This document shows, one piece after another, positions 4,856-48,626 of a DNA stretch of 64,000 nucleotides. The position numbers and the translations under genes were made by a program. The DNA is from Methanofollis liminatans DSM 4140 (GTDB taxonomy: Archaea > Halobacteriota > Methanomicrobia > Methanomicrobiales > Methanofollaceae). The DNA is taken from positions 889,706 to 953,705 of the forward strand of contig NZ_CM001555.1 in NCBI RefSeq assembly GCF_000275865.1, given 5' to 3'. The notes below the pieces were generated by a model. That model was not told the origin of the DNA. It was given only the letters and a program-made list of their open reading frames with translations, and ran no database searches. Within the stretch, counting starts at the first letter, position 1; each line of letters begins with the position of its first letter.

Positions 4856-5847
4856 AAGTCAACCTGATGCATGGTGCGGGCGGCGAGGTGATGGGCGAAC
4901 TCCTCGGCGTTCTTACAAAATTTACCCACAACAACGCCGGCGGGATCGGTCTTGAGTCCCTGGACGACGGTGCAGTGATCCCGATCGGAGACCAGAAGAT
5001 CGTCTTTACGACCGACAGCCATGTCGTCCACCCGATCTTTTTCCCGGGCGGGGACATCGGGAGGATCGCCGTGTCGGGCACGATCAACGATCTGGCGATG
5101 ATGGGCGGCCGGCCCATCGCCCTCTCCTGCGGCATGGTCATCGAGGAGGGCTTCGAGGTCGCCGACCTCGAGCGGATCGTCTCCTCGATGGACGGCGCTC
5201 TGGGGGAGGTCGGCGCTTCGATCGTCACCGGCGATACCAAAGTCCTCGAAAAGGGTTCCCTTGACGGGATCGTGATCAATACCGCGGGAATCGGCGTCGC
5301 CGAGAAGGTCGTGCGGGACAACGGTCTCCTGCCCGGCGACGTCATCATCGCCAGCGGCACCATCGGCGATCACGGCATCGCCATCATGGCCCACCGCGAG
5401 GGCTTCGATCTCGGCGAGCAGATCAGGTCAGACGTCGCCCCCCTCTGGGGGATGGTGAAACTGGCGCTCGCCGCCGGGGAGATCCACGCGATGAAAGATC
5501 CGACGCGCGGCGGGTTTGCAAACGCGATAAACGAGATGGCGCGCAAAAGCGGTGTGCATGTCGAGATCGAGGAGGAGGCCCTCCCGATCAGGACGAACGT
5601 CAGGAGCGCCGCCGCCATGCTCGGCATCGACCCGCTCGAAGTCGCCAACGAGGGCAAGGCAATCATGGGCGTCGCCGCGGAGGATGCTGAAGCAATCCTC
5701 GCCGCCCTGCGGTCCCACCCCTATGGGCAGGACGCCGCCGTCATCGGAAGGGTCACGGAAGGGCGCGACGTCGTGATGAAGACAAAGATCGGCGGCGAGC
5801 GCTATATCGAACCGCCGGTGGGCGACCCGGTTCCCCGGGTCTGCTGA
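4852..5847 (+). CDS. hypE: Carbamoyl-dehydratase HypE
   Basis: A 331-residue protein of the AIR synthase/PurM-like fold. It has the glycine-rich N-terminus MKVNLMHGAGGEVMGEL, an ATP-binding region (SGTINDLAMMGGRP, DPTRGGFANAINEMA) and the diagnostic C-terminal PRVC. The terminal Cys is carbamoylated by HypF and dehydrated by HypE to a thiocyanate, giving the cyanide ligands of the hydrogenase iron. It is the third gene of hypCAE. The pyrC gene follows 30 bases downstream on the same strand and may be co-transcribed. Confidence 0.96.
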   Translation: MKVNLMHGAGGEVMGELLGVLTKFTHNNAGGIGLESLDDGAVIPIGDQKIVFTTDSHVVHPIFFPGGDIGRIAVSGTINDLAMMGGRPIALSCGMVIEEGFEVADLERIVSSMDGALGEVGASIVTGDTKVLEKGSLDGIVINTAGIGVAEKVVRDNGLLPGDVIIASGTIGDHGIAIMAHREGFDLGEQIRSDVAPLWGMVKLALAAGEIHAMKDPTRGGFANAINEMARKSGVHVEIEEEALPIRTNVRSAAAMLGIDPLEVANEGKAIMGVAAEDAEAILAALRSHPYGQDAAVIGRVTEGRDVVMKTKIGGERYIEPPVGDPVPRVC

Positions 5848-5877
5848 ACATTATTTTACTCTCTGGAGGCTGGACCT

Positions 5878-7146
5878 ATGGGTGATCAGGTATCGTGCGT
5901 GCTGAAAAACGTCACCCTCCCTGACGGCAGGGTGACCGACCTCACCCTCGGCGGAGGAAGGGTGCTCCACGCCGGTGCGCCGGGCCGGGCCGAGGAGGTG
6001 ATCGACGCCGCAGGGCTGGTCTGCGTCCCTGCCGCGGTGGACATGCACACCCACCTCAGGGGCGGGGGCCAGCGCCAGAAGGAGGACTGGCGGAGCGGGA
6101 CGACGAGCGCTCTTTTCGGCGGGGTGACGGTCGTTGTCGACCAGCCGAACACCGTCCCGCCGCTGACGACGCCCGGGGCCTTTGCGGCGCGGGTGCGGGA
6201 GGCAGAAGAGGAGGCCGTCTGCGCCTTCGGCATCAACGGTGGCGTCGTTCCAGGCGCGGACCTTGCCGGACTCTGGCGTGCCGGGGCCCTTGCCTTCGGC
6301 GAGATCTTTGCCGGCCCTTCCAGTTATGGCGCCGCCGTGCCACCTGAAACTCTTCGTGAGGCGTTTATCTCCCTGCGTGCCCTCGGCGCCCTCGCCACCG
6401 TCCATGCAGAGGACCCCCTGCCCGGGACGCCCGCGGACCTGCCCGATCACGACCGCCTCAGGCCCGCCCTGACCGAGGCGGAGGCCGTGAGGGCGGTCTG
6501 CGCTCTCCTCCCTCCCGGGGGGCGGGTCCACTTCTGCCATATGAGCACCGCCGCTGCCGTCGACGCCGCCTGCGGCACCGTCGAGGCGACGCCGCACCAT
6601 CTCTTTCTCTCGTGGGAACGCTTCGACCGGGACGACACCCGGGCGCGGGTCAACCCTCCTCTCCGCACAGAGCGGGAGCGAAAAGCGCTCTGGAGCCGCT
6701 GGGAAAGGATCGACGCCGTCGCCTCCGACCATGCGCCCCACACGGCTGCCGAGAAGGGCGCTCCTTTCCCCGACGCCCCCTCGGGCATGCCGGGCGTCGA
6801 GACGATGCTCCCCCTCCTCATGGCAGAGGTTTTTGCCGGGAGGATCACGCTGGAATCGGTGATCGAGAAGACTTCTTCCAACCCGGCCCGGATCCTCGGC
6901 ATCCCGAAGGCCGGGTTTGAGCCCGGCGACCGGGCGGACTTCGCCCTCTATCCCCGGGAGACGGTGCAGATCGATCCCGATGCGCTCCACACGAAATGCC
7001 GGTGGACGCCGTTCGAGGGTATGGCAGCGGTGTTCCCGGAGATCGTGGTGATGGGCGGGCGTTGTGCCGTGAGGGACGGTGACCTCCTCTCCTGCCGCGG
7101 AGAGTGGATCAGAGGGAAGGGCTATTATCCCCGGGGCGCCCAATAG
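5878..7146 (+). CDS. pyrC: Dihydroorotase
   Basis: A 422-residue amidohydrolase that cyclises carbamoyl aspartate to dihydroorotate in pyrimidine synthesis. The metal-binding HxH is H57/H59 (DMHTHLR). Later motifs are HAED, FCHMST and the catalytic SDHAPHT. Where many dihydroorotases carry the carboxylated metal-bridging lysine (K-x-F), this protein appears to have GEIF, so it may use one metal or a carboxylate bridge; that alignment is mine and unverified. GGAGG precedes the ATG. It follows hypE by 30 bases. Hydantoinase-like activity is the main alternative, but the HLR motif and methanogen context favour PyrC. Confidence 0.88.
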   Translation: MGDQVSCVLKNVTLPDGRVTDLTLGGGRVLHAGAPGRAEEVIDAAGLVCVPAAVDMHTHLRGGGQRQKEDWRSGTTSALFGGVTVVVDQPNTVPPLTTPGAFAARVREAEEEAVCAFGINGGVVPGADLAGLWRAGALAFGEIFAGPSSYGAAVPPETLREAFISLRALGALATVHAEDPLPGTPADLPDHDRLRPALTEAEAVRAVCALLPPGGRVHFCHMSTAAAVDAACGTVEATPHHLFLSWERFDRDDTRARVNPPLRTERERKALWSRWERIDAVASDHAPHTAAEKGAPFPDAPSGMPGVETMLPLLMAEVFAGRITLESVIEKTSSNPARILGIPKAGFEPGDRADFALYPRETVQIDPDALHTKCRWTPFEGMAAVFPEIVVMGGRCAVRDGDLLSCRGEWIRGKGYYPRGAQ

Positions 7147-43471: not shown

Positions 43472-45124
43472 CTATTGTTCAGCCCCGGCGTCGGCGTAGC
43501 GGTAGCCCCCGGCCGGGACGACGATCTCGAACCGGGCGCCTTTCCCTGCCTCGCCTGTCTCCCTGATGGCGATCCCGGTGATCATCAGGATCTCGCGTAT
43601 GAGGAAGAGCCCGAGGCCGGTGTTTTTCCCGACGTTCCTGGCAAATAATTTTCCTTTCAGGTCCGGGTCCACGCCCTTTCCGTCGTCCTCTATCCAGAGG
43701 ATGCCGCCCTCGCCGGCAGGGGTAAACCCGATCCTGATCGCCGTCACCCCGCCGCCGTGCCTGACCGCATTCTCAAAGAGGTTGTAGAATACCTTTCCAA
43801 AGAGGGGGTCTGCATAGACCTCCAGGCGGCCGAGATCGATCGAGAGGCCGATGTTGTTGAACCTGACGATCCGGGCCGACTGCCGCGCCACCGCCTCGAC
43901 GCCCTGCCAGACTGGCGCCTTCACCCCGAGGCTCTGGTAGTCCCTGGCAATGGCGATCTGCTCATCGATCATCTCCGAGGCGCTGATGATCCGTTCGGTA
44001 TAGACCCGTTCGTCAGAGCCCTCAGGTGTGATGTCCACCAGCAGACCGGCGTAGCCCCTGATCACGCCGAGATGGTTTTTGATGTCGTGCTGGGTGATCT
44101 CTGAGAGGATGGAGAGTTTCGTGTGCGCCGAGACGAGGGCGTCCTCGGTCTGCTTTAGTTGAGAGATATCGCGGACGATCAGGGTGTGGCCGATGGTGCG
44201 TGATCGGCGATCGGTGACCGGGGCGATCCGCAGTTCATAGTGCTGCAATCCCCCTCCGCTCTGTTTTATGCTTCGTATGTAGGTTCTCTCCTCATCCCCG
44301 TTGTAGCCGGCGATGAGTTCGGGGAAACGGTTTATAATCTCTGCCGCAGGTTTGTTCAGTATCGACGGGGCGGTTTTTCCGATGATTTCCTCCCCTCTGC
44401 GGTTGATCTCGACGATCCGGTAGGCGGGATCGAGGACGAGGATGCCGTCGGTGAGGCCGTTGAGCAACCGCTCCTTCAACACTGGCATATCGCCGAAGAG
44501 GTGAAATCTGAACGCCCCGGCGAAGACAGAGAGGACGGCGAGCATGATGATGAAGGGAAGGGCGGTGCCGGCCTCCGCCGCCGGCGAGAGGGTGGCCACC
44601 CAGGGGATGAGCGCACCCATCAGCACAAGGCCGATCTGCTGCCGGTAGACAGCCGGGGCGTCGAAGAGCATGGAGACGATCAGGAGTATGCTCGCCATGA
44701 TGGTGAGGTACACATAGCCCAGAAAGATCCCGTACGCCTGCCCTGATACGATCTCGCCGGGCGGGATCACGCCGGTGAAGGCAAGGGCGACAGAGACGGC
44801 CGGGATCGCGGCGATGAACGTCACCGTGGTTGGTGTCACGATGTGTTCTTTTCCCGAATACTGGAGGGCGAAGATCAGCCATGCGGGTGGAATGATCGCC
44901 GTACCGAGGAATGCCACGGCGGTCCAGAAGGTCTCCCAGTCCTGGCCCAGCGGGAGAATGTTCATCCCGAGCCCGAACGACCAGATCAGGATCCCGCAGA
45001 TAAATGCGGAGAGCGCCCCTGCTCCAGGGCTGCTCCGCCGTTTCCAGCAGGCAAAGCCGATGGACGCGGAGATGGCAAGCGACGCTGCCATGAAGAGGAT
45101 GCCCTGGATATATGGATTCGTCAT
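43472..45124 (-). CDS. Membrane-bound histidine kinase (7TM-PAS-HATPase)
   Basis: A 550-residue sensor kinase. Residues 1-215 hold about seven transmembrane helices (a HisKA_7TM-like sensor), followed by a PAS domain (NGLTDGILVLDPAYRIVEIN), a dimerisation helix with a phospho-acceptor-like EITQHDIKNHLGVIRGYA, and a HATPase domain with N box FYNLFENAVRHGG and G boxes (DDGKGVD, GLGLFLIREI). No receiver domain or response regulator gene is adjacent. I chose ATG 45124 (MTNPYIQG) because the longer frame runs through a separate small gene and a terminator. Confidence 0.88.
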   Translation of the reverse strand: MTNPYIQGILFMAASLAISASIGFACWKRRSSPGAGALSAFICGILIWSFGLGMNILPLGQDWETFWTAVAFLGTAIIPPAWLIFALQYSGKEHIVTPTTVTFIAAIPAVSVALAFTGVIPPGEIVSGQAYGIFLGYVYLTIMASILLIVSMLFDAPAVYRQQIGLVLMGALIPWVATLSPAAEAGTALPFIIMLAVLSVFAGAFRFHLFGDMPVLKERLLNGLTDGILVLDPAYRIVEINRRGEEIIGKTAPSILNKPAAEIINRFPELIAGYNGDEERTYIRSIKQSGGGLQHYELRIAPVTDRRSRTIGHTLIVRDISQLKQTEDALVSAHTKLSILSEITQHDIKNHLGVIRGYAGLLVDITPEGSDERVYTERIISASEMIDEQIAIARDYQSLGVKAPVWQGVEAVARQSARIVRFNNIGLSIDLGRLEVYADPLFGKVFYNLFENAVRHGGGVTAIRIGFTPAGEGGILWIEDDGKGVDPDLKGKLFARNVGKNTGLGLFLIREILMITGIAIRETGEAGKGARFEIVVPAGGYRYADAGAEQ

Positions 45125-45187
45125 CGATCTGCTGAAGAGTATTCTCTGCAGGAGAGGAAAAAGATTCTCAAATTGCTGAACCGACAG

Positions 45188-45201
45188 AAAAAAAGAAAAA
45201 A
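45188..45201 (-). terminator. T-run terminator after the 16-codon mini-gene
   Basis: On the minus strand TTTTTTCTTTTTTT begins 15 bases after the mini-gene stop codon and lies before the kinase gene. Confidence 0.7.
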
Positions 45202-45216
45202 TTGATGGATATTGAA

Positions 45217-45267
45217 TTACTCCTGCTGAGGTTCCTTCGGCTGCTTCTTGCTTCCCTTCTTTGCCAT
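45217..45267 (-). CDS. 16-residue basic peptide gene
   Basis: ATG 45267 to TAA 45217 encodes MAKKGSKKQPKEPQQE, a short, lysine-rich and probably unstructured peptide. It is supported by a near-perfect ribosome-binding site (GGGAGGTGAG, 4 bases from the ATG), a TATA-like CTTTAAAC about 50 bases upstream, and a T-run terminator just after the stop, giving a predicted transcript of roughly 110 nt. The ribosome-binding site lies within a predicted leader hairpin. It could be a standalone micropeptide or a regulatory leader of the kinase gene 93 bases downstream. I do not recognise a family. Confidence 0.6.
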   Translation of the reverse strand: MAKKGSKKQPKEPQQE

Positions 45268-45326
45268 GGAACTCACCTCCCATCGAGTGAGTTATATCAA
45301 TGTTCATGTGGGAGGGTGTTTAAAGA
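45268..45326 (-). promoter_or_regulatory. Promoter and leader hairpin of the mini-gene
   Basis: On the minus strand CTTTAAAC (about 45318-45326) is a TATA candidate with a start site expected near 45297. The leader contains AACTCAC (45287-45293 strand-reversed) and GTGAGTT (45270-45276 strand-reversed), 7-bp complementary arms around a 10-base loop; the loop and 3' arm contain the ribosome-binding site. Confidence 0.5.
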
Positions 45327-45525
45327 TTCCGCTCAATTCACCGATAAAATTGCGATTCGCCCGCAAAATGATTATTTTTCTCGACGGGATGGAGTTATTT
45401 TTCACCCCCTCGCACCGGTCGAGCGAAAAAGCCCGTAAAGTTCCTGAATTCCGGTCTTATCCTGGTTTTTTCTCGTTTGTGCGGCACCCATGGCTATATC
45501 GCTTCGGGCGCCAGACAGATCTCCC

Positions 45526-45969
45526 ATGCACCTGCTCTTCGGGATCGGAAACCCCCTCCGCGGCGACGACGGCGCAGGCAACCATGTCGCCCGCCACCTC
45601 TCCGCGGACGGCTGGATGGCCTTTGACTGCGGCACCGCCCCGGAGAATTTCACCGCGGTCGTGCGGCGGGCGCGTCCCGACCTCCTCGTCATCGTCGATG
45701 CGGTGGATATGGGTCTCCCTGCCGGCGCTGTCCGCATCGTTCCGCCGGACCGGATCGAGGACTGCGGCATCGGCACCCATACCCTCCCGCTCACCGCCCT
45801 CATCTCCTTCATCGGCGATGACGCCGGTGCGGTGATCGTCGTCGGTATTCAGCCGGCGACCCTTGACTCAAAGGAGGAACTCTCGCCCGCCGTCAGGGAG
45901 GGGGCAAACGCTCTCGCTGCCCTGATCAGGCAGGGGCGGGTCTGGGAGATCCCGGTGCTGGAAGAATAG
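45526..45969 (+). CDS. hycI: Hydrogenase maturation protease (HycI type)
   Basis: A 147-residue endopeptidase that trims the C-terminus of the hydrogenase large subunit after nickel insertion. The nickel-sensing carboxylates are in GIGNPLRGDDGAGNHVA and VIVDAVDMGLPAG, with the late His in GTHTLPL. The start ATG 45526 fits a TATA box (GGCTATATC) 30 bases upstream; the longer frame would cover that TATA. It is convergent with mbhN, 15 bases apart, so the likely client is MbhL. But MbhL as read here ends soon after its CxxC, with no clear long tail. Confidence 0.92.
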   Translation: MHLLFGIGNPLRGDDGAGNHVARHLSADGWMAFDCGTAPENFTAVVRRARPDLLVIVDAVDMGLPAGAVRIVPPDRIEDCGIGTHTLPLTALISFIGDDAGAVIVVGIQPATLDSKEELSPAVREGANALAALIRQGRVWEIPVLEE

Positions 45970-47397: not shown

Positions 47398-48626
47398 CGC
47401 ATCAGCCTCCGTGTCTTCTCCACCGAGAGACGGTGGAGGTCTTCCTTCGTCATCACGCCCTGCTCCCTCCCCCTGACCACGGCCACGCGGTCGGTGCAGG
47501 ACATGCAGGGATCGATGGAGGCGGTGATGATCGGGACGTCGGCGAGCTGTTCGCCTTTGAGCATCGGCAGCCACGACATCTGGTTCGAGTAGGTCGAGGC
47601 CTTCACCTTCCATGTCTGCGGGGCGCCCGACTTGTTCATCCGCACGTAGTGCAGGCACTCGCCGCGGGGCGCTTCCACCCTGCCGAGAGCCTCGCCCTCG
47701 GCCTTCCTGCATGCGGCAAGGATCTTCGGGACCTTCTTCTCCCAGAGGATCTCGCCGGTCGGCATCTGCGCCATGCACTGCCTGACGATATCGATCGACT
47801 GTCCGACCTCGATGAGGCGCACCACGATCCGGTCGTACACATCGCCCCTGATCTCGCCCATGTAGCCGTCGGGCAGCACGGGTTTGATGGCGAGATCGCC
47901 GTAGGCGGCATAGGGGGCGTCGACGCGCACGTCCATCCGCACCCCCGAGGCCCTGGCCGTCGGCCCGACGGTGCAGAGGCCGACGGCGTCCTCCCGTGAG
48001 AGATACCCGTGGTCCCTGCAGCGCAGTTTCACCGTGGCGTCCTCCAGGAAGAGTTCGAGGAGTCTGTCCATCAGGTCCTCGTAGCCGGTGAGCGCCCGGT
48101 CGATCAGGGCGAACTGCTCCTCCGTGATGTCCCTCCTCACCCCGCCGACCTGGATGATCCCGTAGTTCACCCGGTTGCCGGTGAGGTGCTCGATGACGTC
48201 CATCGCCGCCTCCCGCACCCGCCATGCGAGGAAGAAGAGGGTGTCGAAGCCGAGTTCGTGGGCCGCAACGCCGGCCCAGAGGAGGTGGGACTGGATGCGC
48301 TCGAACTCGGCGACGATCGTCCTGATGTAATGTGCCCGCTCGGGCACCTCGATATCGGCGATCTGCTCGACCGCCCGGGCAAACGCCAGGGAGTGCGAGA
48401 CGCCGCAGATCCCGCAGATCCGCTCGGCGAGGTAGAGGATCTGCACAGGGTTGCGCCGCATCCCCATCCACTCGATCCCGCGGTGCGCCTTGCCCGGCGC
48501 GAAATCGGCCGCGGCGATCGCCTCGCCGTCCATCTTCAGGGTGAAGAGGATCGGCTCTTTCAGGGCCGGGTGGATCGGGCCGATCGGGATCGTGGTGGTC
48601 GGCCGCTCTTCTCCATCATTCGCCAT
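47394..48626 (-). CDS. mbhL: Membrane-bound [NiFe] hydrogenase large subunit MbhL
   Basis: A 410-residue NuoD-like hydrogenase large subunit. Both nickel-binding CxxC motifs are intact: ERICGICGVSH near residue 65 and DPCMSCTDR near residue 375, so this is a true hydrogenase and not an Mbx-type enzyme. The start ATG 48626 has a perfect GGAGGTGA. It overlaps mbhK and mbhM by short ATGA-type junctions. Maturation would need HypA-HypE and a protease such as HycI. Confidence 0.95.
   Translation of the reverse strand: MANDGEERPTTTIPIGPIHPALKEPILFTLKMDGEAIAAADFAPGKAHRGIEWMGMRRNPVQILYLAERICGICGVSHSLAFARAVEQIADIEVPERAHYIRTIVAEFERIQSHLLWAGVAAHELGFDTLFFLAWRVREAAMDVIEHLTGNRVNYGIIQVGGVRRDITEEQFALIDRALTGYEDLMDRLLELFLEDATVKLRCRDHGYLSREDAVGLCTVGPTARASGVRMDVRVDAPYAAYGDLAIKPVLPDGYMGEIRGDVYDRIVVRLIEVGQSIDIVRQCMAQMPTGEILWEKKVPKILAACRKAEGEALGRVEAPRGECLHYVRMNKSGAPQTWKVKASTYSNQMSWLPMLKGEQLADVPIITASIDPCMSCTDRVAVVRGREQGVMTKEDLHRLSVEKTRRLMR

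What the first reader, a model, noticed from the sequence alone, without database searches (positions are those of the whole stretch)
45188..45326. A 16-residue peptide gene with its own promoter, leader hairpin and terminator
Seen directly: ATG-16 codons-TAA, GGGAGGTGAG four bases upstream, a TATA-like box about 50 bases upstream, two T-runs 15 bases after the stop, and 7-bp complementary arms that put the ribosome-binding site in the loop and 3' arm of a leader hairpin. This is more signal than a chance frame should have. The peptide is lysine-rich. It may be a standalone regulator or a leader for the histidine kinase downstream.
Basis: partly seen in the sequence, partly recalled or inferred. 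Interest (0 to 1): 0.65.

Follow-up and report, generated by a model that had tools for sequence, protein, structure and literature searches.

The report
Conserved 16-residue protein gene in Methanofollis
The window holds a real, self-contained gene for a lysine-rich protein of only 15-16 residues, found so far only in the methane-producing archaeal genus Methanofollis, with its own conserved promoter, a conserved hairpin over its ribosome-binding site and its own terminator; its job is unknown, and it is not a leader for the neighbouring histidine kinase.

Summary
ATG 45267 to TAA 45217 reads MAKKGSKKQPKEPQQE, with GGGAGGTGAG four bases upstream, 7-bp hairpin arms, a TATA box at -57 and T-runs 15 bases after the stop. 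None of 200 dinucleotide shuffles of the window gave that combination. The gene is present in 9 of 12 Methanofollis genomes, spread over all three clades, as MAKKG[S/G]KKQPKEP plus 2-3 variable residues. The length change is a whole codon, several changes are at wobble positions, and lysine codons are AAG as in EF-1alpha. The leader hairpin folds in all nine and its outer pairs change on both sides between clades. The same nine genomes share upstream blocks at nearly fixed distances. The kinase lies downstream in the same direction in only four genomes; it is divergent in four and absent beside the gene in one, so the 'leader for the kinase' reading fails. No relative turned up outside the genus. 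One close relative lost the gene together with half the kinase beside a transposase, so it is dispensable there. Best reading: an autonomous, probably well-expressed, cationic microprotein gene with translational control at the leader hairpin. Its target is unknown; transcription and translation are inferred.

The parts
45217..45267 (-). 16-codon ORF, MAKKGSKKQPKEPQQE*
   Evidence: orthologues in 9 of 12 Methanofollis genomes
45272..45281 (-). Shine-Dalgarno sequence GGGAGGTGAG
   Evidence: GGAGGTGA invariant in nine genomes
45270..45293 (-). leader hairpin: arms 45293-45287 and 45276-45270, 10-nt loop; 3' arm holds the GTGA half of the SD
   Evidence: folds in all nine orthologues, -7.7 to -11.0 kcal/mol; arms matched within clades
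45318..45324 (-). TATA box TTTAAAC (TTTATAC, ATTAAAC in relatives), 55-57 bases before ATG
45188..45201 (-). T-runs, probable archaeal terminator
   Evidence: a T-run follows the stop in all nine genomes, weakest in G007 and G005
45480..45488 (-). upstream conserved block I, GGTGCCGCA
   Evidence: -219 to -221 in all nine genomes
45406..45416 (-). upstream conserved block II, GGTGCGAGGGG
   Evidence: -146 to -149 in all nine genomes
45374..45380 (-). upstream conserved block III, GGAAAATC-like (GAAAAAT here)
   Evidence: conservation profile
43472..45124 (-). neighbouring 7TM/PAS histidine kinase; not part of the unit
   Evidence: Pfam; position not conserved relative to the small gene

Best explanation
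An autonomous, genus-specific microprotein gene. A TATA promoter, probably with extra upstream protein-binding sites, makes a ~110-nt mRNA with a ~30-nt leader that ends at T-runs. The leader hairpin pairs the GUGA half of a near-perfect Shine-Dalgarno sequence and leaves the GGAG half in the loop, so it tunes how easily ribosomes start. The product is a soluble, probably disordered +3 peptide, KKGxKKQPKEP, that most likely acts in trans by binding a polyanion or an acidic protein surface. Shown: conservation of codons, hairpin, promoter blocks and T-run, and independence from the kinase. Inferred: transcription, translation, high expression, control by the hairpin. Guessed: the binding partner.
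For: Nine orthologues with an invariant core and a whole-codon length change; wobble changes at Gly5 and Pro13 while most other positions stand still; conservation stops after codon 13 and outside the signals. Lysine codons almost all AAG: neighbour genes use 205 AAG to 119 AAA, EF-1alpha 244 to 19. Wobble invariance of KKQPKE has P about 1.7e-4 by neighbour-gene turnover but 0.05 by EF-1alpha turnover, which fits a strongly expressed gene. Hairpin in all nine; chimeric arms from different clades average -6.3 against -8.7 kcal/mol for native clades. Flanking genes change while the unit stays.
Against: No RNA-seq, ribosome profiling or peptide data were available. Lost in G003 (beside a transposase) and apparently in G006, so not essential. 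The covariation rests on three clades, hence few independent events. No homologue of known function.
Confidence: 0.68

Rival explanations
1. Dual-function or mainly regulatory small RNA: the ~110-nt transcript acts by base pairing and the ORF is secondary or shares the work.
For: The 20-nt stretch AAGAAGCAGCCGAAGGAACC is identical in all nine genomes, more than neighbour-gene synonymous turnover predicts. Dual-function sRNAs with short ORFs are proposed in Methanosarcina (PMC11456600).
Against: EF-1alpha-like codon bias nearly explains the identity (P 0.05). Wobble positions at Gly5 and Pro13 vary freely; no conserved fold beyond the leader.
Confidence: 0.17
2. Cis-acting leader peptide of the downstream histidine kinase.
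For: In the window the kinase starts 92 bases after the stop on the same strand; same order in G007, G008, G009.
Against: Kinase divergent in G001, G002, G004, G005; no kinase beside the gene in G011. T-runs separate them.
Confidence: 0.03
3. The leader dyad is a DNA operator rather than an RNA hairpin: a repressor binds ACTTCAC-n5-GTGAAGT near the transcription start.
For: A dyad is equally visible in DNA and lies just after the predicted start site.
Against: The dyad's sequence and loop length differ between clades while pairing is kept, and one arm is tied to the SD; the only other CTCAC-n-GGAGGTGAG in the genome starts no comparable small gene.
Confidence: 0.1
4. Chance ORF in a conserved intergenic promoter region.
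For: Very short.
Against: 0 of 200 shuffles; coding-like substitutions; codon-sized length change.
Confidence: 0.02

Closest known systems
Methanosarcina mazei small proteins found by Ribo-seq (PMC11456600), including the 20-aa sORF_154 within sRNA154
   Same: very short archaeal ORF, genus-level conservation, in a small independent transcript
   Different: no sequence comparison with them was made; M. mazei ORFs were seen translated, this one was not tested; sORF_154 is reported as leaderless, this one has a strong SD in a hairpin
Haloarchaeal micro-proteins (zinc-finger type, e.g. HVO_0758, PMC10716476)
   Same: tiny archaeal proteins encoded by their own genes
   Different: those carry C(P)XCG zinc motifs; this peptide has no cysteine
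MtrI / MtrR small proteins of M. mazei (PMC12774963, PMC13370731)
   Same: precedent for small methanogen proteins acting in trans on a large complex
   Different: no sequence comparison was made here; no link to Mtr seen here
Leader of the L7Ae mRNA (PMC6298567)
   Same: precedent for structured 5' leaders controlling translation in archaea
   Different: k-turn bound by L7Ae; here a plain stem of 7-8 pairs

Membership tests
Stand-alone small protein gene (archaeal micro-protein) | protein-level conservation of the ORF | tested here: met
Stand-alone small protein gene (archaeal micro-protein) | own promoter and terminator signals, independent of neighbours | tested here: met
   (sequence level only)
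Stand-alone small protein gene (archaeal micro-protein) | demonstrated translation | not testable with these tools
   no Ribo-seq or peptide data
Leader peptide / attenuator | conserved position upstream of the regulated gene, same strand | tested here: not met
   kinase divergent or absent in 5 of 9 genomes
Dual-function sRNA | conserved RNA structure or seed beyond coding constraint | tested here: inconclusive
   no fold beyond the leader; 20-nt identity nearly explained by codon bias
Known Rfam family | match above gathering score | tested here: not met
RNA thermometer | SD paired at low and freed at high temperature | tested here: inconclusive
   predicted stability falls smoothly, about -11 to -13 kcal/mol at 20 C to -4 to -5 at 55 C; GGAG stays mainly in the loop in most sequences

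The most novel reading that the evidence does not exclude
A 15-16-residue basic protein that is an autonomous, highly expressed gene product controlling itself: the peptide (or a partner) binds the covarying leader hairpin over its own Shine-Dalgarno sequence, under a multi-site promoter of constant geometry over ~220 bp.
Probability: 0.12. Interest if true: 0.65.

Novelty: new member of a known kind. Interest (0 to 1): 0.47.

Why it matters
Genes this short are normally skipped by annotation, and here a mechanical ORF call even extends the kinase across it (ORF 43472-45307). This one has unusually full comparative support, namely a conserved promoter, leader hairpin, codons and terminator, plus one close natural deletion strain. 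That makes it a clean case for asking what a 16-residue protein does in an archaeon.

Tried and rejected
Kinase-leader reading: rejected on synteny. Rfam families: none. RNA structure for the whole transcript or the upstream region: no support. Upstream block II as a regulon motif: the other copies in three genomes mostly lie inside long reading frames; one intergenic copy beside a TATA-like box in G008 was not followed. Relatives outside the genus: none in 84,980 species genomes by one strict pattern, none credible in 150-199 genomes of the order, none in viral contigs. One pattern search was mis-designed (a codon left out) and counts for nothing. Extra nucleotide-level constraint: looked strong against neighbour genes (P 1.7e-4) but shrank to P 0.05 with EF-1alpha as yardstick.

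Full report
What is there. On the minus strand, ATG 45267 to TAA 45217 encodes MAKKGSKKQPKEPQQE. GGGAGGTGAG (45281-45272) lies four bases upstream, TTTAAAC (45324-45318) lies 57 bases upstream of the ATG, and T-runs (45201-45188) begin 15 bases after the stop. AACTCAC and GTGAGTT can pair over seven bases and put the Shine-Dalgarno sequence in loop and 3' arm. In the window only three ATGs follow GGAGGTGA at proper spacing; the other two begin ORFs of over 60 codons (one of them the 49-kDa-type hydrogenase subunit near 48626). The whole combination occurs once, and in none of 200 dinucleotide shuffles.

Who has it. The window lies in a 2.48-Mb genome of Methanofollis, judged by the titles of the three matching named records, whose contigs are the same as those of three same-genus genomes. 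Nine of twelve genomes of the genus carry the gene: 16 residues ending QQE or QPE in two genomes, 15 residues ending QE, KQ or KE in seven. The length change is one codon. Changes inside the first 13 codons are wobble changes (codons 4, 5 and 13), Ser/Gly at residue 6, and one Ala-to-Val at residue 2. A strict pattern over 84,980 species genomes found only Methanofollis (records near the window's own genome may be left out there), and a looser one over 150 genomes of the order found no convincing relative. Distant relatives with a different core could be missed.

Presence and loss. An EF-1alpha tree has three clades, all with the gene, so it was probably in the genus ancestor. G003, the sister of the window's genome (99.1% in EF-1alpha), lacks it: only kinase residues 263-550 remain, next to a DDE transposase, and the rest, including the small gene, is gone. 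G006 lacks it and has the 5' part of the neighbouring TPP-enzyme gene replaced. In G010 the contigs end inside this region, so its absence may be an assembly gap.

Not a kinase leader. The small gene precedes the kinase on the same strand in G000, G007, G008 and G009. In G001, G002, G004 and G005 the kinase is divergent, and in G011 the next gene is the TPP enzyme. The upstream neighbour also differs: a hydrogenase cluster in most genomes, whose large subunit is only 43-44% identical between the window and the others, and another gene in G007. The unit travels as a block.

Conserved signals. The conservation profile shows separate blocks: -221 to -213 (GGTGC[C/G]GCA), -149 to -139 (GGTGCGAGGG), about -113 to -107, the TATA region, the 5' hairpin arm, the SD and codons 1-13; beyond codon 13 it falls towards background. 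The distances vary by one to three bases over 220 bp. In 61 genomes the paired upstream motifs at this spacing occur in exactly the nine genomes that have the small gene, beside it, plus one extra differently spaced match in G002. Blocks I and II share GGTGC and lie about 72 bp apart; repeated sites for one regulator are a reasonable guess, not a result.

The hairpin. The leader folds in all nine sequences at -7.7 to -11.0 kcal/mol. The four inner pairs (TCAC/GTGA) never change; the 3' side is fixed by its SD role, but the 5' side has no such reason. The fifth pair is C-G in two clades and T-A in the third, and the sixth is A-T or C-G; the third clade has a bulged A and then C-G and G-C. Arms from different clades combined give a mean of -6.3 against -8.7 for arms of the same clade, though not every swap is weaker. 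These are few independent events. The GUGA half of the SD is paired with probability of about 0.95 or more in six of seven leaders, and GGAG is mostly in the loop; in the window's own leader an alternative pairing involves part of GGAG as well.

Coding or RNA? The stretch AAGAAGCAGCCGAAGGAACC is identical in nine genomes. Judged by synonymous turnover in neighbouring genes this is surprising (P 1.7e-4), but by EF-1alpha, where lysine is AAG in 244 of 263 cases and glutamine always CAG, it is not (P 0.05). The sparing reading is a gene translated at high rate. A further RNA role is not excluded.

Mechanism. Most likely this is an autonomous gene for a cationic microprotein acting in trans, with initiation tuned by the leader hairpin and transcription set by an upstream multi-site promoter. 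Expression and translation are inferred; the partner is unknown. The closest known things are the short translated ORFs of Methanosarcina (PMC11456600) and haloarchaeal micro-proteins (PMC10716476). It resembles them in kind; no sequence homology is claimed.

Noticed in passing
L080:5836-7215 (G006): A chimeric reading frame: an N-terminal part that looks by eye like a Mur-ligase-type cofactor F430 gene joined to the C-terminal part of the TPP enzyme; Pfam sees only the TPP C-domain.
   Followed up: partly
L079:7381-9317 (G003): DDE transposase next to a kinase gene that has lost its first 262 codons; the small gene is gone as well.
   Followed up: yes
L064 around 5118-6085 (G007): The TPP-enzyme gene beside the kinase is frameshifted in this assembly.
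   Followed up: no
window 45490-45969 and the upstream side of the small gene in G008/G009: HycI-type hydrogenase maturation protease divergent from the small gene; similar but apparently decayed sequence seems to lie at the same place in G008 and G009.
   Followed up: no
L095 (G008:C2:411401): A second intergenic GGTGCGAGGGG directly before a TATA-like box, away from the small gene.
   Followed up: no
L057, L059, L062, L063 just after the stop codon of the small gene: In one clade the stop codon lies in a small inverted repeat GTGAAC-n-GTTCAC before the T-run; in another GGAGT...ACTCC precedes the T-run, like an intrinsic terminator.
   Followed up: no
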